32,166 bases of DNA, taken from positions 1 through 32,166 of IMG/VR virus record IMGVR_UViG_3300025305_000076; one strand, given 5' to 3'. The translations under genes were made by a program, and so were the position numbers. The number at the start of each line of letters is the position of its first letter. Within the stretch, counting starts at the first letter, position 1. The stretch comes from a virus. The notes beneath the pieces are model-generated. The model saw only the letters and a list, made by a program, of their open reading frames with translations. It did not search any database and had not been told where the DNA came from. This document shows positions 618-32,166 of this stretch, piece by piece.

Positions 618-935
618 ATGCCAAGACACGGCTCAAGAATCAACCCACATAATATACCAGGAAGACCAGGATATAATCCAAACATACCATCTGGTGGAGC
701 ATATGGAGGTAGTCAAGGAGGATATGGAGGCCCATCTGTTAATGGTCAAGCACGAAGACCATCATATGGACAAAATCCAGGATATGGAAGATCTCCAATG
801 CCAAGACAACCATTAAGAGGCTCTCGCTTTGGCGGACAAAGACAGCCAATGGGTTATGGTGGAAGACCTCAGTCTGGTGGAAGATTCTCAGGACTGTCAA
901 GGTTAGCTAGGTTGCTAGGTAGAGGAAGAAGATAA
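618..935 (+). CDS. Gly/Arg/Pro/Tyr-rich low-complexity protein
   Basis: A 105-aa protein with one of the strongest SD sites in the window (AGGAGG at 607-612). Almost the whole chain is low complexity, built of GGYGG, RPSYGQ, NPGYGR and GGRPQSGGRF units, and ends in a basic helix-like tail (LSRLARLLGRGRR). It has no Cys or enzyme motif. Composition resembles disordered RGG or prion-like domains, and a second such protein lies at 10851-11444. Inference: a disordered virion or scaffolding component that binds nucleic acid or membrane. Confidence 0.6.
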   Translation: MPRHGSRINPHNIPGRPGYNPNIPSGGAYGGSQGGYGGPSVNGQARRPSYGQNPGYGRSPMPRQPLRGSRFGGQRQPMGYGGRPQSGGRFSGLSRLARLLGRGRR

Positions 936-3181: not shown

Positions 3182-3474
3182 TGGAGTGGATAGTTGCAAA
3201 ATTAGGAATAGGGGCAGTCAAGTGGACAGTTGGTGGAATAGCTGGACTTGGTGCAGCCTGGGCTCTGAAACGCATTCCCAACGGTAAAATAAAGGCAAAA
3301 ACAGGCCTTATAGGGTATTCAGCAGGCGTAGCCATGACTTTAGGGCTTGCTAAATGGAAATGGAGCAAAGCAGTTTGGAATAAAGTTATTGAACCTTGGT
3401 TTATAGATTTGCTAGACAATTGCGTATCTCATACCCTGCAGGAATTTTTGCGTGGTTTAAGGAGCGATAACTAA
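3181..3474 (+). CDS. Small membrane protein, holin candidate
   Basis: The start is taken as ATG 3181, in a TAATG overlap with the XhlA-like gene; a longer in-frame form from 3118 would read through that gene. The product has 97 residues and two hydrophobic stretches (about 8-27, Gly/Ala-rich with GGIAGLGAAWAL, and about 40-57, TGLIGYSAGVAMTLGLA), both with GxxxG-like spacing. The C-terminal helix is soluble. Two TM segments next to an XhlA-like gene and an endopeptidase suggest the holin. The gene ends in the 13-base sequence also found at 266-278, which carries the SD of the next gene. Confidence 0.55.
   Translation: MEWIVAKLGIGAVKWTVGGIAGLGAAWALKRIPNGKIKAKTGLIGYSAGVAMTLGLAKWKWSKAVWNKVIEPWFIDLLDNCVSHTLQEFLRGLRSDN
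3458..3470 (+). repeat. 13-base repeat, copy 2
   Basis: Identical to 266-278, in the end of the holin candidate gene, carrying the SD for 3474-3953. Confidence 0.5.
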
Positions 3475-3953
3475 TGGCGAGCACAGTAACTGCAGCAACT
3501 CTTAGCGTGTCCATAACAGAAAGTATTATTTTAAATGGAAGACAGCAAGGCGGAACTATTACTAAAACTTTTGCTTCAATCAATGAGATAAGTAAGAGAA
3601 TATTAACTATTACAACTAATGAAGCTACAATAGCTACATTTAGTGGAGCTGTTGCTTCAGCTGGACATTGGAATGATGGTAATGTAAGATATATAAGATT
3701 CACTAATAAAGATGACACTTATTTTGTTTGCTTTACATTCACGAATGATGATAATGATGAATTCGCTGTTAAGCTTGATGCAGGACAGTCTTTTGTATTG
3801 TGTGGTGATAATTCCACTGGTATGGAACTTATTTTTAATGCAACTCAAAATGCTGATTCTGCTTCTCATACAGCTTTTGGAAGTTTGACAACTATTCAGG
3901 CTGATGCAGAAGCTTCTACTGTTGATATAGAAATGTTTATAGCGAGCGTCTAA
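3474..3953 (+). CDS. Beta-rich virion protein, copy 2 (paralog of 938-1411)
   Basis: A 159-aa protein, beta-rich, with an aligned core shared with the product of 938-1411: SINEISKRILTITT, NVRYIRFTNKDD, LDAGQSFVLC and the end IEMFIASV. The DNA identity looks low, so the duplication is old. SD AAGGAG is embedded in the 13-base repeat at 3458-3470; the gene is coupled by TAATG on both sides. It sits between the holin candidate and the endopeptidase, an odd place for a structural gene. Likely a decoration, fiber or minor tail protein. Confidence 0.6.
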   Translation: MASTVTAATLSVSITESIILNGRQQGGTITKTFASINEISKRILTITTNEATIATFSGAVASAGHWNDGNVRYIRFTNKDDTYFVCFTFTNDDNDEFAVKLDAGQSFVLCGDNSTGMELIFNATQNADSASHTAFGSLTTIQADAEASTVDIEMFIASV

Positions 3954-10850: not shown

Positions 10851-11444
10851 ATGGCAGGTTATAATAATATGCAAAGAGGTCCAGCACCACCGTTGTATGG
10901 TGGCGGACAAAGAGGTGGCTTTGGACAGGTACCACGAGGCGTTCCAGGAAGAATGCCTTCACCAAATCCAATGGCAATGAGAAGGCAGGGAATAGGAATT
11001 GGACCTGGAGGTGGAAGACCTCAGCATCGTCCTGTACAGGGTGTGCCAGGGCAAGAGTTTATGCCAGGCATGATGAACAGACCTGAAGGCTTAAACAGAA
11101 TGGGTGCGCAAGAACGGCAGCCTTTTCAAGAGTTTCTTGCTTGGCTGAATGATGCTCCCTATGGAGATATGATGCGTACAGGCAATCCAGTAGCGCCATG
11201 GGAACAGCCTAAAGGACAACAGTCACCAAGAGGAGGACGACCTAGCAAACCATTATATTCACCACCAGGAGGTGGACGACCACCAAGAGGTGGCGGAAGA
11301 CCACCAATGAATAGACAATTTTCACAACCAAAGCCTGGAGGAGTACCTTATGACTTTGGTCAATTCTCAGGCGGAGGAGGACAGTCTCCATTGTATCAGC
11401 CACCTGGATTCGGCGGAATGCCACCAATGCCAAGAGGTTATTAA
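10851..11444 (+). CDS. Gly/Pro/Arg-rich low-complexity protein
   Basis: A 197-aa protein with a strong SD (AAAGGAG). It is mostly Gly, Pro, Arg and Gln, with RGG-like units and three related sites (PPLYGGG at 13-19, KPLYSPPGGG and SPLYQPPGFG). A small ordered island around residues 80-110 (QERQPFQEFLAWLNDAPYGD) could be a short interaction helix. Composition parallels the 105-aa protein at 618-935. The PPLY site is a class I WW ligand pattern, of interest given the WW domain encoded two genes downstream. Function unknown; probably a disordered virion or assembly protein. Confidence 0.55.
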   Translation: MAGYNNMQRGPAPPLYGGGQRGGFGQVPRGVPGRMPSPNPMAMRRQGIGIGPGGGRPQHRPVQGVPGQEFMPGMMNRPEGLNRMGAQERQPFQEFLAWLNDAPYGDMMRTGNPVAPWEQPKGQQSPRGGRPSKPLYSPPGGGRPPRGGGRPPMNRQFSQPKPGGVPYDFGQFSGGGGQSPLYQPPGFGGMPPMPRGY

Positions 11445-11632
11445 TGCAGATAGGAAAGACATTAGCAGATTTCTACATTAATAAACATAAAAGCTGTGGT
11501 GGATGTCAGAAGCGATGGAAGGGTATGCAGAATAAACTTAACATGCATCAGACTCCAGAGTTTCTAAAGAAGCGAGTAAAAGATAATACAGAAATGAAAA
11601 GGGTACTAGACACACTATTTAAAGGTAAGTAA
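11444..11632 (+). CDS. Small basic protein with a CxxC motif
   Basis: A 62-aa basic protein coupled by TAATG to the previous gene. It has one CGGC motif (residues 18-21) and helical segments on either side (LADFYINKHK, EFLKKRVKDNTEMKRVLDTLF). One CxxC could be half of a metal site in a dimer or a redox pair. No family recognised. Confidence 0.5.
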   Translation: MQIGKTLADFYINKHKSCGGCQKRWKGMQNKLNMHQTPEFLKKRVKDNTEMKRVLDTLFKGK

Positions 11633-11633
11633 T

Positions 11634-12674
11634 ATGGCACAATTCAGATCACCACCAGAAAACGTATGGCATCAGTTCTTTAATCAAGGGATACCTCAGA
11701 TTGGTGGTATTGTTGAAGGCAATAGGAAGGCAAAAGCTCTTGAAAAAAGAGAAGAAAAAGAAGACTTTCTTATGATAACAAAATCTCTTTTTGAAATGGC
11801 TGGAAAGACTGCTGCTACTAACCCTGATTCTGGTGCAAACTTATATGGTAATGTTCTTGATTTTCTGGAAGAAAATAAAAATGTTTATGGTGATAAACTA
11901 ATTGATGGACTTAGTGTTATAGCTCAGGGACAAATAGATGCAACGAACGTACAGAAAACAGTTAAATTAAAAAAATCTGATTATGTAAGAAGAGTTAGAT
12001 CTAAAGATCCTGAGATTCGCATGTCTCCAGGACAAGCTATGCAAGAAATGATAAAATTTGGATGGGGAGATACTAACGAATATAAACTTATTAAAGCATA
12101 TTCTGCAAATCCATTGTCATTCGATAATCCTGATTTATATAATAAGATAGAATTAGCAAAAAGTGTGACTCAGATAGTTAGAGATCCGATTACTGGACAG
12201 CCAATCCCAGGAACATTTGAACCAGGAAGTGAAGCTGAAATTGAAATAATAAAAGTTATGGACGAAGTTCTTAATTATTTAAAAGGAGAAGAGACATCTG
12301 GTACACCAGAACCACCGCCAAAAGGAGGAAAAGTTATATGGGATCAAGTTTGGGACGAAAAAACTCAAAGACCATATTATATAAATAGAGAAACAAAAGT
12401 AACATCTTGGGATGTAGGCGCAGGTGATAGCGTTAATGTTGTAGTACCAATTCCAGAAAAGAAAAAAGAAGCTGTTGCTAAGTTTAATACACGTGAATCA
12501 GCCGAAGGAGGTTTTATAGATATTGAACATCCAATGGGTTCAGGTAAATGGATATCTGTTCGTGAGAGACTTTTTCAGTTAGCTACTGGTGTAAACGCTA
12601 AGAAATCTACCAAAGAAAGATTAGCAAGGACGATTGGAATAACACTAGAAGAACTAGAAAACATACTGAAGTAA
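11634..12674 (+). CDS. Virion-operon protein with a WW domain
   Basis: A 346-aa protein. The N-terminal 220 residues are mainly helical. A Pro-rich linker (GTPEPPPKGG) then leads to a WW domain with W236 and W259 and the core YYINRETKVTSW, including the Y-Y-x-N-x-x-T-x-x-T-x-W signature. The proline usually found two or three residues after the second Trp is absent (WDVG). WW domains bind Pro-rich ligands such as PPxY and are rare outside eukaryotes. The C-terminal part has a GGFIDIEHPMGSGKW strand pair and ends in a short helix-turn-helix-like unit. SD AAAGG. The neighbouring 1580-aa protein carries a candidate ligand. Confidence 0.65.
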   Translation: MAQFRSPPENVWHQFFNQGIPQIGGIVEGNRKAKALEKREEKEDFLMITKSLFEMAGKTAATNPDSGANLYGNVLDFLEENKNVYGDKLIDGLSVIAQGQIDATNVQKTVKLKKSDYVRRVRSKDPEIRMSPGQAMQEMIKFGWGDTNEYKLIKAYSANPLSFDNPDLYNKIELAKSVTQIVRDPITGQPIPGTFEPGSEAEIEIIKVMDEVLNYLKGEETSGTPEPPPKGGKVIWDQVWDEKTQRPYYINRETKVTSWDVGAGDSVNVVVPIPEKKKEAVAKFNTRESAEGGFIDIEHPMGSGKWISVRERLFQLATGVNAKKSTKERLARTIGITLEELENILK

Positions 12675-12677
12675 CCC

Positions 12678-15600
12678 ATGGCTGAAGAAGGAAAAATATT
12701 CCCAGAATTAAATAGTATTCTGAAAGACAGCCTTCTCTTAACCCAAGAAGAATTGAATCCTAAGGATGACGATTGGGAAGGGAGTCGTGAAGACTGGCTT
12801 GCACAAATTTTACCACCAGCATTAGAAGAAACATCTAATATTGAAATCCCTAGTTACCTTAAAGGGGAGATACCTCCACCACCAGATTATCCACCACCAC
12901 CTGAAGGCCCACCTCCACAGATAGATCCATCAGACCCAGAAGGACTTAAGGCATTAGCGCCAATAGGTTCTGAACCAAGAGAATTTGATATGGGTTCATT
13001 AACTGTTGATACTGATTATACATTTGCAAGACCAAGACCTATGCAGTGGGTTGGTGGTTCGTTTGTAGAAGCACTTCTTGGTCCTGTATTCCCTCCTGAA
13101 AAGAAAATGCCACAACCAGAGACAACTGAAGAATTCATTTATTATCTTACAGGTCAAGTCCCTGGTACTGTGGCTTCATTTATGCCATGGAATATGGCGT
13201 TTGGAGGGGCTAATATACCAGTAACTAAAGGACCTCAGGTTAAAGAAGCTTATAAAATATATAATAAGTATTTCAAAATGTGGAAATCTGGCAAGAAAAA
13301 ACAAGCTATCCAAGGGTTAAGAAAAGCTAAAGATAAAGGATTATTACATTATCTTGATGACGCAGGAAACGCAAAACCAATACTTATGAACCCGTCTGGT
13401 GCTCTTGGTTCTTCTAAAAGATATGTTACGTGGATGGCTGAACAGTCTGCAAAAAGACCTATGGTTATGAAAGCTCTTGATACTGGAGTTAGGAATTTTC
13501 TTACATTTGGTGCTCATGGGCAAGTATACGCAAATCTTCCATTGGAAGATCTTAAGGGAAGAGGAAAGCAGTTTTTACACGATGAAATGATGGGTGCTTT
13601 ATTCACTATTGCAAGTGCTCCAAATATAGCTGATATGAGTAAATTAGCACAACACACTCTTACACCAGCTGCTATGTTTCTTATAGGTTCTGGTGCTGTA
13701 GATCCTAGTAGTCCATTTTTTATGAAAAGTCCATTTGAAGAAACTCAAGAAGAGGGAGTTGGAAGTAGTTTAACTGATAGACTTATAATGGGATTAGCAT
13801 TACCCACATTTTATTATGCAAGTCATGGTATGAGTAAAGCTAGAATAGAAAGTAAACATATAACTGCCCTTGAAGCATTTAACATAAGCAGGGCTGAAGC
13901 AGGAAAACTTATACGTGAATCTAATTTTCTAGATGCATATATTAAGGTTGCATTAAAGCCAAGGCCTGAAGACATACAGCAGGTGTGGACATCAAAAGAT
14001 GGTAAGAATGTTGACTTCTTAAACATAGCTAGGGAAAAAGGTAAAACTCCAGTAGTTCAGTATATGGATTTAGAAACACATAAAGTTAATGAAATGACTG
14101 TAGGAAGATTTTATCAAAGACATAAAAGAGCAGCTACTGGTGAAAATCCAGAACTATTTGATTTAGACGCATCATACAATAAAAGTAAAAAAGTCTGGGA
14201 AGTAACTAAAGTTGATGCAAGGGGTAACAAGTTTGGCAAGACAGAAACTATGAAAGGTGTAGATGCAAAAGATAAATATGTTGCTGGCTTTGGTGAGCAG
14301 ATAGCTGAATCTAAAGCAAAGCATAAAAATCTTGTAAGATCTGCCAAGACAGCTGAATCAAACTTTGGTGTTCCAGACAAGGAAGCAAAAATTATAAAGA
14401 ATGCATTGTATAAACAGAGCGGTGGATCTACGCTTAATATGACAAATGCAGAGTTAAGAGAATATGGTAAGATAATTCGCTCAAGTATTGTCGGAGCATC
14501 TTCTAAGCATCCAAGCACACTATGGCTTGAAAATTCAGGCGGTAAAATTGGAAATACTTTAAATGCTCTTAATAGAGATATTGTTCTTGGGCCAGTTGCT
14601 TATCTTCGTGGATTAAAAAAATCTCCAGGCTCTAGAGAGCTTTCCTATCTTATTGAAGATGTTCTTGATACTGAAAGCCTTGAAAAAGGTAAGTATGCAG
14701 ATATGATACTTTCATTACAAGATATGAACTTTAAAGAAAATCAAATAAGAGGACTACAGGGTCTTATTGATCCTACCTTTAAAGACTTTGTTCCAAAGGA
14801 TGTTTTAAATCATCCTATGCGAGAACAAGCAGTAGAGTTAGTAAAAACAACCCTCAATAAAACTTTTGACCAATTAGCACAGCACGGAGTTAAAGTTACT
14901 TCATATAGAGGTGGTAAAAAAGTAAGTGAAAAAATATGGGAAGCTTTAGATAGTAAAGGTGAAGAAATTATATTGAATGAATATAATGATGTTGCAAGTA
15001 TAGAAATTGGTGATAAGGTCACTGATCTAGGTGGTAATGTACGTAGAATACACGAAATAAATAGCCACTTACAGCAAGATTATATACATAGAGTCCTTAC
15101 TAAAGATGCCAGAAATGCTTTCGATAAAGATAAAGGTTTTAAAAGTATAATTATTGAAAGAATGGTAAAGAACGACGAAGATGCTAAGGTTATGAAGGAA
15201 GAAGGAAGATCTGAAGATTCTATACGTGAAGAAATGTGGAAAAAATTTAACAAAGTTTCTGGATGGATAGATCAGCTTGGTATATATGGAAGGCAGTATT
15301 CACGTATTCAAGACCTACCACCAGAGATTGCTTGGGATGCCGCAGGCAATGAAATAAAACTGGATAAATTCAATACCTATAAAAAAGGTGAAACTGTAGA
15401 TGGAAGGGTTATAGAACAAATTATACCAATATATGAAACTGATTTTAGGCAGGTAATCCCAAGATATGCTAATAAAGTTGCTCATATAATTTCAATATCA
15501 AAACATTATGGCGAAGAAGGTTTAGCAGGGGAAATAGCACAAGGACATATAAATAGGGTTAGGGCAGAAACAAATAACGAGATTGGTAATTATGTTGAAA

Positions 15601-23523: not shown

Positions 23524-23711
23524 TTTGCTATCCTTTCTCTTGTCTTGCATTGTGCTTTAAATTCGCCAACCATAACATCAACCTCTGGATGTTCACCCAA
23601 AGATCTTCCATCGCTACCCCAGGCTCGTAGAGATTTAATACCGAAACTCTTTGCTATCTTTACGCATAGTCTTTCGAATCTACTTCCCTTCTGTTTGCTT
23701 TTGTTTCCCAT
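23412..23711 (-). CDS. Holliday-junction-resolvase-like PD-(D/E)xK nuclease
   Basis: A 99-aa protein with the compact Hjc-like layout: KGSRFERLCVKIAKSFG (E13 in the first helix), then RAWGSDG, then PEVDVMVGEFKAQCK with D45, E50 and K52 as the D...ExK catalytic set. Such enzymes cut branched DNA from recombination or replication, for example before packaging. The C-terminal strand-helix (VYVIQKYENWLKIISK) looks complete. It overlaps the sigma-factor gene by 32 bases and the downstream zinc protein gene by 112 bases. Confidence 0.65.
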   Translation of the reverse strand: MGNKSKQKGSRFERLCVKIAKSFGIKSLRAWGSDGRSLGEHPEVDVMVGEFKAQCKTRERIAKWIKPSKYVDIQIVKENYGEVYVIQKYENWLKIISKK

Positions 23712-24237
23712 TTATCTCCTTTATTGCTCTAATCTTTCTAAGTCTGATACGAGCAGAGTACAACTGATTTTCTACTGTTCTTTTAGATAGAGAAAAAGTT
23801 TCTGCTACCTCACTAACTGTCTTTTTTTCATAAGTTACCATCTTAAAAACTTTACGCATTTTTTTTGGCAATCCTTTTTCAATTGCATGGTCAACGGTTT
23901 CCTCTAAAAACTTTTGCATACATAGCTTTTCTGGGCTATATTCATACAATCTCTCTTTCTGTATTTCATTTAATTTGTCATAGTATTTCTTCTTAGTAGT
24001 CTCGCGTCTGAAATAATCATAACAAATATTATACCCAATTGTTTTTATCAAAGAGAAGAATCCATATGCATCTTCTAGCCACAATCTTTTTTTCCACACA
24101 CGGAGGAAAGTATCCTGTACTATATCGTAGGCAAATTCACTATCCCCAACCTTTTCTACCATCATTGAATATAGAACTGGACTATATTCTCTGAATAAAT
24201 CTGAAAATATTTCTTCGTCATTTTTTTTCATAACCAA
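23680..24237 (-). CDS. ECF-type RNA polymerase sigma factor
   Basis: A 185-aa protein with sigma-70 region 2 (LFREYSPVLYSMM, then AYDIVQDTFLRVWKK at 37-50, and FFSLIKTIGYNICYDYFRRE at 60-79) and region 4 (LPKKMRKVFKMV, VSEVAETFSLSKRTVENQLY, SARIRLRK at about 123-168), separated by a short linker and with no region 1 or 3: the ECF layout. It would direct host polymerase to phage promoters. Start is TTG 24237 or ATG 24231 (MKKND); neither has a strong SD. The 5' region is a dense series of stem-loops, and an HTH gene lies upstream. No anti-sigma gene is seen. Confidence 0.8.
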   Translation of the reverse strand: MVMKKNDEEIFSDLFREYSPVLYSMMVEKVGDSEFAYDIVQDTFLRVWKKRLWLEDAYGFFSLIKTIGYNICYDYFRRETTKKKYYDKLNEIQKERLYEYSPEKLCMQKFLEETVDHAIEKGLPKKMRKVFKMVTYEKKTVSEVAETFSLSKRTVENQLYSARIRLRKIRAIKEINGKQKQTEGK

Positions 24238-27592: not shown

Positions 27593-27883
27593 TTACTCTA
27601 CCTTATACATTTCATATTTAAGTGTTAGCTCTTGTCCTGCTTTAATATCTTCTGTCGTTTCGAGCCAGTTTCTGTTTGATGCCCTTAGTAGTGTGCAGTT
27701 TGGTGATTTGGAGTGATTTATAAATCCTCCAAGTGGCGATCTGGTTACTTCTTCCCATAGAAAATAGTGGGTGATACCTATTCTTGTTTTATTCTCTATA
27801 TCTTCAGTAGCAAACAATCCAAGTCCTTCTATGCCAGACTGTTTGATAGTAAGATAATCTGGGAGTGGTTTATACTTTTTCAT
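27593..27883 (-). CDS. Minimal SET-domain protein (lysine methyltransferase-like)
   Basis: A 96-aa protein with the main SET motifs in order: SGIEGLGLFATEDI (16-29, the GxGLFA segment), GGFINHSKSPNC (52-63, the NHSxxPN cofactor-site motif) and TTEDIKAGQELTLKYEMY (76-93, ending in the G-x-E-L-T-x-x-Y signature with Y90). It is shorter than viral vSET (about 119 aa) and lacks a Cys-rich post-SET. SET enzymes methylate lysines with S-adenosylmethionine. The target here (host, phage or none) is unknown. Confidence 0.75.
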   Translation of the reverse strand: MKKYKPLPDYLTIKQSGIEGLGLFATEDIENKTRIGITHYFLWEEVTRSPLGGFINHSKSPNCTLLRASNRNWLETTEDIKAGQELTLKYEMYKVE

Positions 27884-28684: not shown

Positions 28685-29947
28685 TTACGGGTATGTTAAT
28701 TGCATCGCATTAGATGAGAATTCAACTATACTCTCATCTGGTTCAGTGAATTTGTCGATCCTTTTGAGGACATAATCAACCACATCATCTGAAAGGTGGA
28801 GGGTTTCCACAAACTCCGTGAATGTTATCTCCCTATCAGCCTCGGTGTATAGCTTCACCAGTTTTTTGCGGAAATCTGTGTAGAATTCACCATCACTTTC
28901 TAGACTCCTGCCTACCTGTATCCCTGTCTTAACTATCGCCTGACAGAGATAGAGCCAGTTCTTCATCTTTCTCGGATTGTTGGTACCAGAATGGTAGCGA
29001 AACTCTATCGAGCCGAGATAGATTCTTGCGTGCATATTCATTCCGTGATAACGAGAACTATTGTATTTATCGAGTGATGGTGAATTTGAGCACGAATCGT
29101 ACCAAGTATCTATAAAGCTTTCATTACTGTCGATACTCAGTATTGATTCTACACTCATAGGCAACGGTCTGCACCAAGTTGAATTTAGTCTCGAGGTTGG
29201 AATCATTTTGTAGAGATATTTTTCTACCTTTTTCCCAACCAGGAGTACTCCCTTTAGTTCTTCCCATTGTAGATCTCTTGCATCAATGTGTACGTGTAGT
29301 CCACAAGAAGTATTTGGATAGCAAGAGTTCATCCTAAGGTGCAACGCTAATGAATCTATGCTTTCGTAAAGCATATCTCCATTTTGTGGTGCTTTTAATA
29401 AGAATTCTGCACCATCCTCTGGGAGGCTTCCGTCTGTGGTCATCATCCAATCTGGAGGACATCCATCTCTCACATCACCCCAATCTGAGCCCAATATCGT
29501 TTCAACTTCTAAAGAAGCAAGTCTCTTGAATGGATTTTTATCGTATGTTTCGCTTTCCTTTATTACGAAGCTTGCTCCAGATGAATAGGATTCAAGTGAT
29601 ATATTTCTATCTCTTTCTTCCCAGCAACTGTTACAGTAGTAGTAATCCTCGTCATAGCTTGCCTCCTCTCTTTCTACCTCCGCATCACAAACATCGCAGT
29701 TAGTATATCTCTCGTAATAGCAATCCTCACAGTACACATAATCATTGCTATGTTCTGAGCGATATATCCTATTTCGAGGTAGTTCGTGATCGCAATCGCA
29801 ACACATAGTAAAGAGATCTTCATAACATTGATGACAGAACGGTTCACCTTCTTCATACCGATTTGACCCGAAGATTTCAGATTCAGAGTAATGTATATCA
29901 TTTCTATCGGTATTTTTATCACAATGTCTACATCTTATTTTTACCAT
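28685..29947 (-). CDS. Amidoligase with three N-terminal zinc ribbons
   Basis: A 420-aa protein. Residues 1-110 hold three Cys-rich knuckle pairs (CRHC...CHQC, CDCDHE...CEDC, CDVC...CNSC). The rest is a glutamine-synthetase-like amidoligase (Amidoligase_2 type): SLEVET (145-150), DGSLPEDGAEF (172-182), TSCGLHVHIDA (213-223, metal-binding), YHGMNMHA (300-307), SIEFRYHSGTNNP (313-325). Such enzymes join carboxyl to amino groups with ATP. SD AGGAGGAG is strong. The amidotransferase encoded upstream could supply ammonia. The zinc ribbons are probably for substrate or partner binding. Substrate unknown. Confidence 0.8.
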   Translation of the reverse strand: MVKIRCRHCDKNTDRNDIHYSESEIFGSNRYEEGEPFCHQCYEDLFTMCCDCDHELPRNRIYRSEHSNDYVYCEDCYYERYTNCDVCDAEVEREEASYDEDYYYCNSCWEERDRNISLESYSSGASFVIKESETYDKNPFKRLASLEVETILGSDWGDVRDGCPPDWMMTTDGSLPEDGAEFLLKAPQNGDMLYESIDSLALHLRMNSCYPNTSCGLHVHIDARDLQWEELKGVLLVGKKVEKYLYKMIPTSRLNSTWCRPLPMSVESILSIDSNESFIDTWYDSCSNSPSLDKYNSSRYHGMNMHARIYLGSIEFRYHSGTNNPRKMKNWLYLCQAIVKTGIQVGRSLESDGEFYTDFRKKLVKLYTEADREITFTEFVETLHLSDDVVDYVLKRIDKFTEPDESIVEFSSNAMQLTYP

Positions 29948-29956
29948 AATCTCCTC

Positions 29957-30250
29957 CTATGCTATTGCATTGTTTGCTGTTATCAGAGCGAATACCCAAA
30001 TACTCACTTCCCTAAGCCAACCTATCTTTTTAAGGGTATCGTATATTTCATCAATCCCACCATCAACCTCTTTACCTTCAAGGACTTTTATCTGATGTTT
30101 GAGATGTTTCAGATAATCCTCGAAACTGTCAGTATTGACAAAAGGATTCTTCTTTGCCCTCTGGTATAATCTCTCCAATACGTACTTCTTTGACTTGATT
30201 TTTATTGGTGTTGATATACCAACGAGCATTGCTTTTCTTTTCTTTTTCAT
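29957..30250 (-). CDS. Small protein between amidotransferase and amidoligase genes
   Basis: A 97-aa protein with a basic N-terminus (KKKRKAMLVGISTPIKIKSK) and helical middle (FEDYLKHLKHQIKVLEGKE), ending in a short hydrophobic segment (VSIWVFALITANNAIA), perhaps a membrane anchor. SD GGAG; start overlaps the amidotransferase stop (ATGA). It may be a partner of the two enzymes. No family recognised. Confidence 0.5.
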   Translation of the reverse strand: MKKKRKAMLVGISTPIKIKSKKYVLERLYQRAKKNPFVNTDSFEDYLKHLKHQIKVLEGKEVDGGIDEIYDTLKKIGWLREVSIWVFALITANNAIA

Positions 30251-31467
30251 ACATTATCTCCTACATTGAATCGTTCTATTTTCTCAGGAAGGAGTAATAC
30301 TTCCTGCTCATCATCGTCTTTTTCATCATATGGATCTGGATCGCAACCATCACAAATGAGTGATTCTCCGAAGTCAGTCATTTCATTTTTATCCACCCAA
30401 TCTGAGCACCAATCACATAACCTGAGATCTGGATTGTTTTTCTTATTTTGTTCAATCTCCTCAAGTTTGCACTCTTCCCAGCAGTCTCCACAAAGTGTCC
30501 AATGAAGATCGTCTACATACTTGGTATCTTTTTTACTCACCCAGCATTTGCAGTAATCACATTGGACGTGAGAATTATGGTTATGGGTAGTTATCTGTTC
30601 TGCCCTGACATCCTCCCTGCAGTTCCAACATAGTTTGGTTTTATAGTACGTTGTAGCTCCACACTCGGTACACCTTGAGGATTCACCTTGATAGCCAGAA
30701 TATCCGTAATAAGAGCCAGAATAGTATTTGCTAACCTTTGGTTTGAACTTCTCTTTAGTGTGAATTGGCGAACTGTTAAAGTTTTCCGTTTCACATCCGT
30801 AGATTATTCCTTTTTTGAGTGAACCACATTTAAGAGTCCCCAGACCTGCATTACTCAAAGCCGTATGTAATATTAGCTCTGTGCTTGCCCAGAAGAGAAT
30901 CTTAGCTTTTTTCCAGTATGCAACACATAGAGGCCTCGATGATTCCCTTGCAAGATAGACAATGCTCGGATCGTCTTTAATGAAGGTAATCGCATAGTCG
31001 CCATCTATCTTTTCAAGAGCATTTTTGATTTTGTTCCTGTTTATTGCACCAAAGATGGCTTCGGAGTCAACTTCTATTGTTTTGTTCATCTTTCTAGCGA
31101 GTTCATTATGGTTACTTAATACACCATTATGAGCTCCGACAACTTTGCCTATGGCAAATGGATGAGCATTTCTAATAGATATTGTTCCGTGTGTAGCGAG
31201 CCTTACGTGTCCTAGAACTGCAGTTGTAGAGCGATTCAGTTCGGGAATTATTTTTTCTTCCCAATCTTCGTGCTCAATCATATCAAAGGAGGGCATAACA
31301 GTTTTAAATATTGACCTTGACTCTTTCGAGATGAAGGCTATACCTGTACTGTCTGTTCCTCTTACTGATGATTCATCTGCAAGATACTGGAGTACCAGTC
31401 TTGATTGCTCAATCTGGAAGTTGTTTTGTGAGTCAGCCTTTTTTGCTAACCCGAATACTCCACACAT
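30247..31467 (-). CDS. Class II glutamine amidotransferase with C-terminal zinc ribbons
   Basis: A 406-aa protein. The first 230 residues are an N-terminal-nucleophile glutaminase: C2 (MCGVFG), RGTDSTG (36-42), GHVRLATHG (86-94), GAHNGVLSN (111-119), DSEAIF (134-139), GDYA (156-159). These enzymes release ammonia from glutamine. The synthetase half of asparagine synthetase or GlmS is absent and replaced by three zinc-ribbon pairs (CTECGA...CWNC, CDYC...CGDC, CDWC...CDGC) and an acidic tail. SD AAAGGA. It lies between two amidoligase genes, its probable ammonia users. Confidence 0.85.
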   Translation of the reverse strand: MCGVFGLAKKADSQNNFQIEQSRLVLQYLADESSVRGTDSTGIAFISKESRSIFKTVMPSFDMIEHEDWEEKIIPELNRSTTAVLGHVRLATHGTISIRNAHPFAIGKVVGAHNGVLSNHNELARKMNKTIEVDSEAIFGAINRNKIKNALEKIDGDYAITFIKDDPSIVYLARESSRPLCVAYWKKAKILFWASTELILHTALSNAGLGTLKCGSLKKGIIYGCETENFNSSPIHTKEKFKPKVSKYYSGSYYGYSGYQGESSRCTECGATTYYKTKLCWNCREDVRAEQITTHNHNSHVQCDYCKCWVSKKDTKYVDDLHWTLCGDCWEECKLEEIEQNKKNNPDLRLCDWCSDWVDKNEMTDFGESLICDGCDPDPYDEKDDDEQEVLLLPEKIERFNVGDNV

Positions 31468-31485: not shown

Positions 31486-32166
31486 TTATTGATTAAAGTA
31501 ATCTCTTACTTCGTCTTTATTGTGTTGTTCCTTGTATGCTTCCTTCTCATCTGAGAAGAATCCATATAAGTTTTCTTCTCCAATCATTTGGAGATAATCT
31601 TCAAGACCAATTCCGACGTAGCCTGAATCTTTAAATTCTTTATTTAATTCTTTTTTGGAGCTATGTACAACTGCGAGGCAAAACTTAAGCCAACTCATTA
31701 TAAATCTGGAAGTTGTTCTCGTGGGAAAGTATCTGAACTCAATAGTACCGTGGAGGAATCTGGAATGGAGATTTAAACCACGGTATCTTGAATCATTATA
31801 TTTGTCTGTTGTCATCTCTACATCACTTAATGTCATATACCAAAGCTCTGCAAAGTCTTTCATATCATTTATTCTGAGAATACTCTCTGTCCAATGATTC
31901 ATATGTCTTGGCAGGGGAGCTGAATATTTCCTTTTAAATCTTATGATTGGAAGAGATAAATACATATATTCTTCCATTTTTAACATTATGAGCAATATTC
32001 TCCTTAGTTCTTTATGTCTTAAAAGTCTTGCATCTATATGAAAATGAATACCACAGGAGGAATCTCCCCACATATACTTATTATCAATATAATTTAATAT
32101 TTTATTAAGAGATTTAAACATATTATCTCCATTTAGCGGACCGTGAGATCTTAATTCTATCCCAAG
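31486..32166 (-). CDS. Second amidoligase (partial, start outside window)
   Basis: The frame is open to the window edge, giving 226 residues, and does not need the internal ATG at 32121. The new N-terminal residues (LGIELRSHGPLNGDN) align with DGAEFLLKAPQNGD of the first amidoligase. Then SSCGIHFHIDARLL, YRGLNLHSRF and GTIEFRYFPTRTTSR match its CGLHVHIDARDL, YHGMNMHARI and SIEFRYHSGTNNP. It is thus a diverged paralog. Whether it has zinc ribbons cannot be seen. Confidence 0.8.
   Translation of the reverse strand, partial: LGIELRSHGPLNGDNMFKSLNKILNYIDNKYMWGDSSCGIHFHIDARLLRHKELRRILLIMLKMEEYMYLSLPIIRFKRKYSAPLPRHMNHWTESILRINDMKDFAELWYMTLSDVEMTTDKYNDSRYRGLNLHSRFLHGTIEFRYFPTRTTSRFIMSWLKFCLAVVHSSKKELNKEFKDSGYVGIGLEDYLQMIGEENLYGFFSDEKEAYKEQHNKDEVRDYFNQ

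What the first reader, a model, noticed from the sequence alone, without database searches (positions are those of the whole stretch)
12339..12410. WW domain in a bacteriophage virion-operon protein
W236 and W259 are 23 residues apart with YYINRETKVTSW between, very close to the WW consensus, after a Pro-rich linker. WW domains are a eukaryotic-type peptide-binding module and are rare in bacteria and phages. It could hold virion parts together through Pro-rich ligands, or bind host protein. The missing proline after the second Trp makes it slightly atypical.
Basis: partly seen in the sequence, partly recalled or inferred. Interest (0 to 1): 0.8.

Follow-up and report, generated by a model that had tools for sequence, protein, structure and literature searches.

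The report
WW domain in a phage structural protein
A protein encoded among the particle genes of an uncultivated bacterial virus carries a small peptide-grabbing WW module, so far characterised almost only in eukaryotes, and the very next gene encodes a giant protein with a proline-rich strip of the type such modules grip, which suggests the virus uses it to join two particle parts.

Summary
Residues 236-260 of the 346-aa ORF 11634-12674 match Pfam WW at E=6e-8, 33.0 bits (cut-off 26.9), W236 to W259 exactly as described. The segment's solved-structure matches are nearly all WW proteins (PCIF1, PRPF40A, NEDD4L, Prp40). An AlphaFold model, low in confidence overall, still forms the three strands, and its best Foldseek hits are WW domains. 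The contig is a phage: DnaB, endolysin, ECF sigma factor, Shine-Dalgarno sites. The WW gene lies in a run of 197, 62, 346 and 1580 aa that resembles podovirus ejection genes gp14-gp15-gp16 in order and roughly in size.

New here: the strongest proline tract of the whole window, IPPPPDYPPPPEGPPP, lies at residues 65-80 of the 1580-aa protein encoded 3 bases downstream. Best explanation: the WW domain docks that tract and couples two neighbouring virion (perhaps ejection) proteins. Sequence favours Prp40/PCIF1-like binding over strict PPxY binding, because the group I histidine is Arg252. Binding is inferred, not shown.

The one close homologue ends at the contig edge exactly at W236, so conservation is untested. 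No other phage WW was found in the collections or papers searched. The WW fold is near certain; the partner is a hypothesis.

The parts
11634..12674 (+). ORF of 346 aa: mostly helical N-terminal part (about 1-220), Pro-containing linker, WW domain, helical C-terminal end
   Evidence: no family other than WW in Pfam, PHROGs or NCBIfam
12339..12413 (+). WW domain (residues 236-260), W236 ... Y248-Y-I-N-R-E-T-K-V-T-S-W259
   Evidence: Pfam WW 33 bits, E=6e-8; PDB hits PCIF1, PRPF40A, NEDD4L, Prp40; Foldseek top hits are WW domains
12303..12338 (+). linker TPEPPPKGGKVI just before the WW domain; unchanged in the 89%-identical homologue L003 up to its contig end
12678..17420 (+). ORF of 1580 aa immediately downstream, strongly basic C-terminus; ejection-protein (gp16-like) candidate by position and size only
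   Evidence: no Pfam, PHROGs, NCBIfam or PDB match
12870..12917 (+). putative WW ligand IPPPPDYPPPPEGPPP (residues 65-80 of the 1580-aa protein), contains PPDY
   Evidence: 11 Pro in 18 residues, the highest of all window proteins; at most 8 in 2000 shuffles of the protein
10851..11444 (+). ORF of 197 aa, rich in Gly, Pro and Arg, with PPLY at residue 13 and a PPR motif; gp14-sized neighbour and possible further WW ligand
11444..11632 (+). 62-aa ORF between the 197-aa and 346-aa genes

Best explanation
Residues 236-260 are a genuine WW domain in a phage structural protein. It works as a docking module: its aromatic groove (Tyr248, Trp259 and neighbours) grips a polyproline stretch of another virion protein. 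The most likely partner is the N-terminal tract IPPPPDYPPPPEGPPP of the 1580-aa protein encoded just downstream, so the pair is held together during virion assembly, and perhaps during DNA ejection in the manner of the podovirus gp15-gp16 pair. Shown: the WW match, the predicted strands, the proline tract, the gene order. Inferred: that the groove binds this tract, that both proteins are in the virion, and that they are ejection proteins.
For: Pfam WW above the cut-off. The 37-aa segment finds nearly only WW proteins in the PDB: PCIF1 7.7e-4, PRPF40A 0.003, NEDD4L 0.003, Prp40 0.018. A template-free two-sequence AlphaFold model has strands at 235-241, 246-251 and 257-258; all top 20 Foldseek hits are WW domains or WW-containing proteins (some of the larger ones aligned over much longer stretches), best by probability PCIF1 2jx8 (0.94, rmsd 1.8 over 28 columns). 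A second, single-sequence model in another context again ranks PCIF1 first. The X-Pro groove residues (Tyr248, Trp259) and Asn251 and Thr254 are present. The densest proline tract of the window is in the adjacent ORF, and PPP occurs in only two window proteins, the WW protein and that neighbour. Gene order fits the gp14-gp15-gp16 ejection operon described in PMC8954989. Prp40-type WW domains bind polyproline and also PY ligands (PMC1557994).
Against: No binding data. Both AlphaFold models are poor overall (mean pLDDT about 41-42, about 50-59 over the WW region in the better one) and Foldseek E-values are 0.19 or worse; VIA-align listed only matches to the helical parts. The 1580-aa and 346-aa proteins match no known ejection protein, so that role rests on order and size, and 346 aa is below the size range quoted for gp15. 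The group I histidine is Arg252. The stabilising Pro after W259 and the LPxG before W236 are missing. There is no homologue in which co-conservation of WW and ligand can be tested. PPxY is only mildly enriched (4 seen, 1.2 expected, P=0.027).
Confidence: 0.5

Rival explanations
1. The WW domain binds a proline-rich protein of the host cell after being ejected, or a host factor during assembly, rather than a phage protein.
For: WW domains are general proline-peptide readers (PMC1557994); if the protein is an ejection protein it would enter the host envelope (PMC8954989, by analogy).
Against: A strong proline tract is encoded in the adjacent gene, so no host partner is needed. The host is unknown and no host protein could be examined.
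Confidence: 0.15
2. The WW domain binds proline motifs of its own protein or of the 197-aa Gly/Pro/Arg-rich protein (PPLY, PPR), giving self-association, autoinhibition or a multivalent matrix, with the 1580-aa tract secondary.
For: EPPPK lies a few residues before W236 and is unchanged in L003; PRPF40A WW domains are autoinhibited by an N-terminal proline motif of the same protein (PMC11079029); PPLY and PPR in ORF 10851-11444.
Against: EPPPK is a much shorter ligand and so close to W236 that reaching the groove of the same copy may be hard.
Confidence: 0.2
3. It has the WW fold but only as a structural piece of the protein, no longer binding peptides.
For: Missing LPxG and C-terminal Pro, Arg at the specificity position.
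Against: Both groove residues (Tyr248, Trp259) are kept; the second Trp is exposed and used for ligands in known WW domains (PMC11079029), so its retention points to binding. Prp40 WW1 begins IWKE, also without LPxG.
Confidence: 0.12
4. Chance resemblance or an assembly chimera with eukaryotic DNA.
For: No second assembly carries the complete WW segment; the homologue L003 ends at W236.
Against: E=6e-8; no chance match in 200 shuffles. The ORF is continuous, its N-terminal 235 residues including the linker recur in another sample's contig, and GC of WW, gene and neighbour agree (0.32, 0.35, 0.37).
Confidence: 0.03

Closest known systems
PCIF1 WW domain (PDB 2jx8)
   Same: Best sequence match (E=7.7e-4) and highest-probability fold match in both models; shares RPYYxNRxT...W and aligns without gaps
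   Different: Part of a eukaryotic RNA cap methyltransferase; here a single WW in a phage structural protein without a catalytic domain
PRPF40A / yeast Prp40 WW domains (8pxw, 1o6w)
   Same: N-x-ETK-x-[ST]-x-W core (PRPF40A WW1), no LPxG before the first Trp, polyproline (and PY) ligand class
   Different: Tandem WW pair in eukaryotic splicing; the third aromatic of their YYYN core is Ile250 here; single copy in the phage
WW-like EL4 C-terminal domain of M. tuberculosis PMT (PMC12331936)
   Same: A prokaryotic proline-peptide reader compared with WW domains
   Different: That motif lacks the second Trp and the third strand; the phage domain has both Trp and passes the Pfam cut-off
T7 gp14-gp15-gp16 ejection proteins (PMC8954989)
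   Same: Gene order and size series with a giant last gene; basic C-terminus of the giant protein
   Different: No sequence match found; to my knowledge T7 ejection proteins contain no WW domain

Membership tests
WW domain (Pfam PF00397) | Profile match over the curated cut-off | tested here: met
   33.0 bits against 26.9, E=6e-8
WW domain (Pfam PF00397) | Two Trp about 20-23 residues apart | tested here: met
   W236 and W259, 23 apart
WW domain (Pfam PF00397) | Three-stranded antiparallel sheet | tested here: met
   Predicted strands 235-241, 246-251, 257-258; top Foldseek hits are WW domains; low model confidence and weak E-values, not experimental
WW domain (Pfam PF00397) | Pro 3 residues after the second Trp (typical, not obligatory) | tested here: not met
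   W259-D-V-G; the profile match ends before it
WW domain (Pfam PF00397) | Binds proline-rich peptides | not testable with these tools
   Needs a binding assay
Group I (PPxY-binding) WW domains | His in the Tyr pocket (YAP His32 position; own knowledge) | tested here: not met
   Arg252 by ungapped alignment of the YYxN...W core
Group II/III (polyproline-binding) WW domains | Prp40-like core with an extra aromatic in the YYY segment | tested here: inconclusive
   Nearest matches include PRPF40A and Prp40, but the third aromatic is Ile250
Podovirus ejection proteins (gp14/gp15/gp16-like) | Clustered genes: gp14-like, then gp15-like, then a larger gp16-like ORF | tested here: inconclusive
   197, 62, 346, 1580 aa in order against PMC8954989; order fits, but a 62-aa ORF intervenes and 346 aa is below the 431-982 aa range given for gp15
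Podovirus ejection proteins (gp14/gp15/gp16-like) | Sequence similarity to known members (often absent even among accepted ones) | tested here: not met
   WW protein and 1580-aa protein: no hit in PHROGs, Pfam (beyond WW), NCBIfam or phage records; PDB gives only WW or weak unrelated hits

The most novel reading that the evidence does not exclude
A bacteriophage uses a WW domain and polyproline/PPxY peptide pair, a module thought eukaryotic, as an internal connector between two virion (ejection) proteins encoded side by side.
Probability: 0.5. Interest if true: 0.8.

Novelty: new variant of a known kind. Interest (0 to 1): 0.62.

Why it matters
WW domains have been characterised almost only in eukaryotes; a 2025 paper calls an imperfect WW-like motif the first functional one in a prokaryotic protein (PMC12331936). 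A complete one in a phage, next to a gene encoding a matching proline tract, would show this recognition system working inside virus particles of bacteria, raise the question of when it moved between domains of life, and offer a small testable pair for phage assembly.

Tried and rejected
Homologue searches with the WW protein: phage records, plasmids and 84,980 prokaryote genomes gave nothing; viral contigs gave one truncated relative; its C-terminal third gave none. The 1580-aa neighbour: none. The 995-aa tail-position protein (ORF 4345) gave five short contigs; the three of them searched hold no WW match, and none but L003 reaches the gene. Two WW-shaped DNA patterns over viral contigs gave 43 loci; on translation they carried stops, lay in short frames, or in unrelated proteins such as a recurrent WYNS.TGKS.IYYTNP.T.QSQW. 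The WW segment and a WW consensus against phage records: nothing significant. WW alignments against viral and prokaryote contigs: none confirmed. These scans need exact short patterns or BLAST-level similarity, so they do not prove that WW domains are absent elsewhere. A read-through translation (TAA read as Gln) joined the WW domain and the proline tract in one chain to see whether they dock; the model was too poor to judge. VIA-align returned only matches to helices. A survey of WW frequency in bacterial phyla was not possible from a virus record. Papers: none found on WW domains in phages.

Full report
Observation. The window is an IMG/VR virus record of 32,166 bases. ORF 11634-12674 encodes 346 aa. 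Pfam's WW profile matches residues 236-260 with 33.0 bits, E=6e-8, over the curated cut-off of 26.9. A WW regular expression matches once in six frames of the window and never in 200 base shuffles.

Fold. The 37-residue segment searched against PDB sequences returns nearly only WW proteins: PCIF1 (7.7e-4), PRPF40A (0.003), NEDD4L (0.003), yeast Prp40 (0.018), then YAP, Itch, NEDD4 and Pin1. AlphaFold with only two sequences gives a poor overall model (mean pLDDT 41) but places strands at 235-241, 246-251 and 257-258. Foldseek's top 20 hits are all WW domains or WW-containing proteins, with PCIF1 at probability 0.94 and rmsd 1.8 over 28 columns; the E-values themselves are weak (0.19 and up), as expected for about 25 residues in a 346-residue model. 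A second model from a single sequence also ranks PCIF1 first. Foldseek also uses amino-acid similarity, so this is not fully independent of the sequence match. Together with the profile match this makes a WW domain nearly certain.

Specificity. The core aligns without gaps to known WW domains: Y248 and W259 form the X-Pro groove, N251 and T254 are kept. The position of the group I histidine holds Arg252, so strict PPxY recognition is less likely (own knowledge of the WW code). Of the nearest relatives, PCIF1 is named for binding the phosphorylated CTD, PRPF40A reads polyproline motifs (PMC11079029), and yeast Prp40 domains bind polyproline, phospho-Ser/Thr-Pro and PY peptides (PMC1557994). The proline after W259 and the LPxG before W236 are missing; Prp40 WW1 also lacks the latter.

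Setting. The window is a bacterial virus: DnaB-like helicase and endolysin, ECF sigma factor and DNA methylase, weak matches to the phage SU10 adaptor family, Shine-Dalgarno motifs before 17 of 35 genes against 11% at random positions. The WW gene lies downstream of the tail-position genes. The order 197 aa, 62 aa, 346 aa (WW), 1580 aa resembles the ejection operon of podoviruses, where a gp14-like gene is adjacent to gp15, followed by a larger gp16 (PMC8954989); T7 gp14 has 196 aa (own knowledge). No sequence similarity to ejection proteins was found, and the WW protein is shorter than the gp15 range in that paper, so the assignment is positional only. The giant protein has no strongly hydrophobic 19-residue segment (best 1.16) and a basic C-terminus (net +11 in 30 residues).

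Candidate ligand. Among the window's 35 ORFs considered, the densest proline stretch, 11 of 18 residues, is in IPPPPDYPPPPEGPPP at residues 65-80 of the 1580-aa protein, whose gene starts 3 bases after the WW gene ends; 2000 shuffles of that protein never exceed 8. PPP occurs in only two proteins of the window, the WW protein (EPPPK, before the domain) and this neighbour. PPxY motifs also occur in ORF 10851 (PPLY) and ORF 8607 (PPGY, PPQY); overall PPxY is mildly enriched (4 against 1.2, P=0.027). An adjacent gene encoding a first-class WW ligand is the main reason for proposing an internal virion connection.

Relatives. Viral contigs hold a handful of short relatives. Only L003 (same contig as L002, sample 3300009413) reaches the WW gene: 89% identity over residues 1-235, including an unchanged TPEPPPKGGKVI linker, and the contig ends at the TG of the W236 codon. 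In it residues from about 157 on are much more divergent than those before (78% against 99.6% DNA identity; 25 of 35 differing codons non-synonymous). So whether the WW domain and the tract are conserved is open. No other WW domain was confirmed in phage records, viral contigs or prokaryote genomes by the pattern-limited searches available, and no paper on a phage WW domain was found.

Known context. A 2025 paper states that WW domains had been characterised exclusively in eukaryotic proteins and describes an incomplete WW-like motif of a mycobacterial mannosyltransferase as the first functional one in a prokaryotic protein (PMC12331936). The phage domain is more canonical (both Trp, profile over cut-off) but its function is untested.

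Verdict. Real WW domain in a probable virion protein of a bacterial virus: confidence about 0.95 for the domain. Docking to the proline tract of the neighbouring giant protein: about 0.5.

Noticed in passing
27593-27883 (-): A 96-aa SET domain protein (Pfam SET E=1.3e-11), a second eukaryotic-type domain in this phage.
   Followed up: no
28685-29947 (-), 30247-31467 (-), 31486-32121 (-): Two Amidoligase_2 genes flank a class II glutamine amidotransferase gene; looks like a peptide-modifying cassette. The second amidoligase lies at the window's end and may be truncated.
   Followed up: no
618-935 (+); L007:1061-1399: Low-complexity Gly/Tyr/Arg/Pro protein ending in a basic tail; the relative L007 shares the C-terminal part but has a different N-terminus.
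   Followed up: no
938-1411 and 3474-3953 (+): Two ORFs of 157 and 159 aa in the particle gene block with look-alike beginnings and ends, perhaps paralogues (by eye).
   Followed up: no
12102-12299 (residues 157-222 of the WW protein): Segment far more divergent from L003 than the part before it, with mostly non-synonymous codon changes, then a conserved linker; suggests recombination or diversifying change just before the WW domain.
   Followed up: partly
23680-24237 (-): Phage-encoded ECF-type sigma factor with regions 2 and 4.
   Followed up: no
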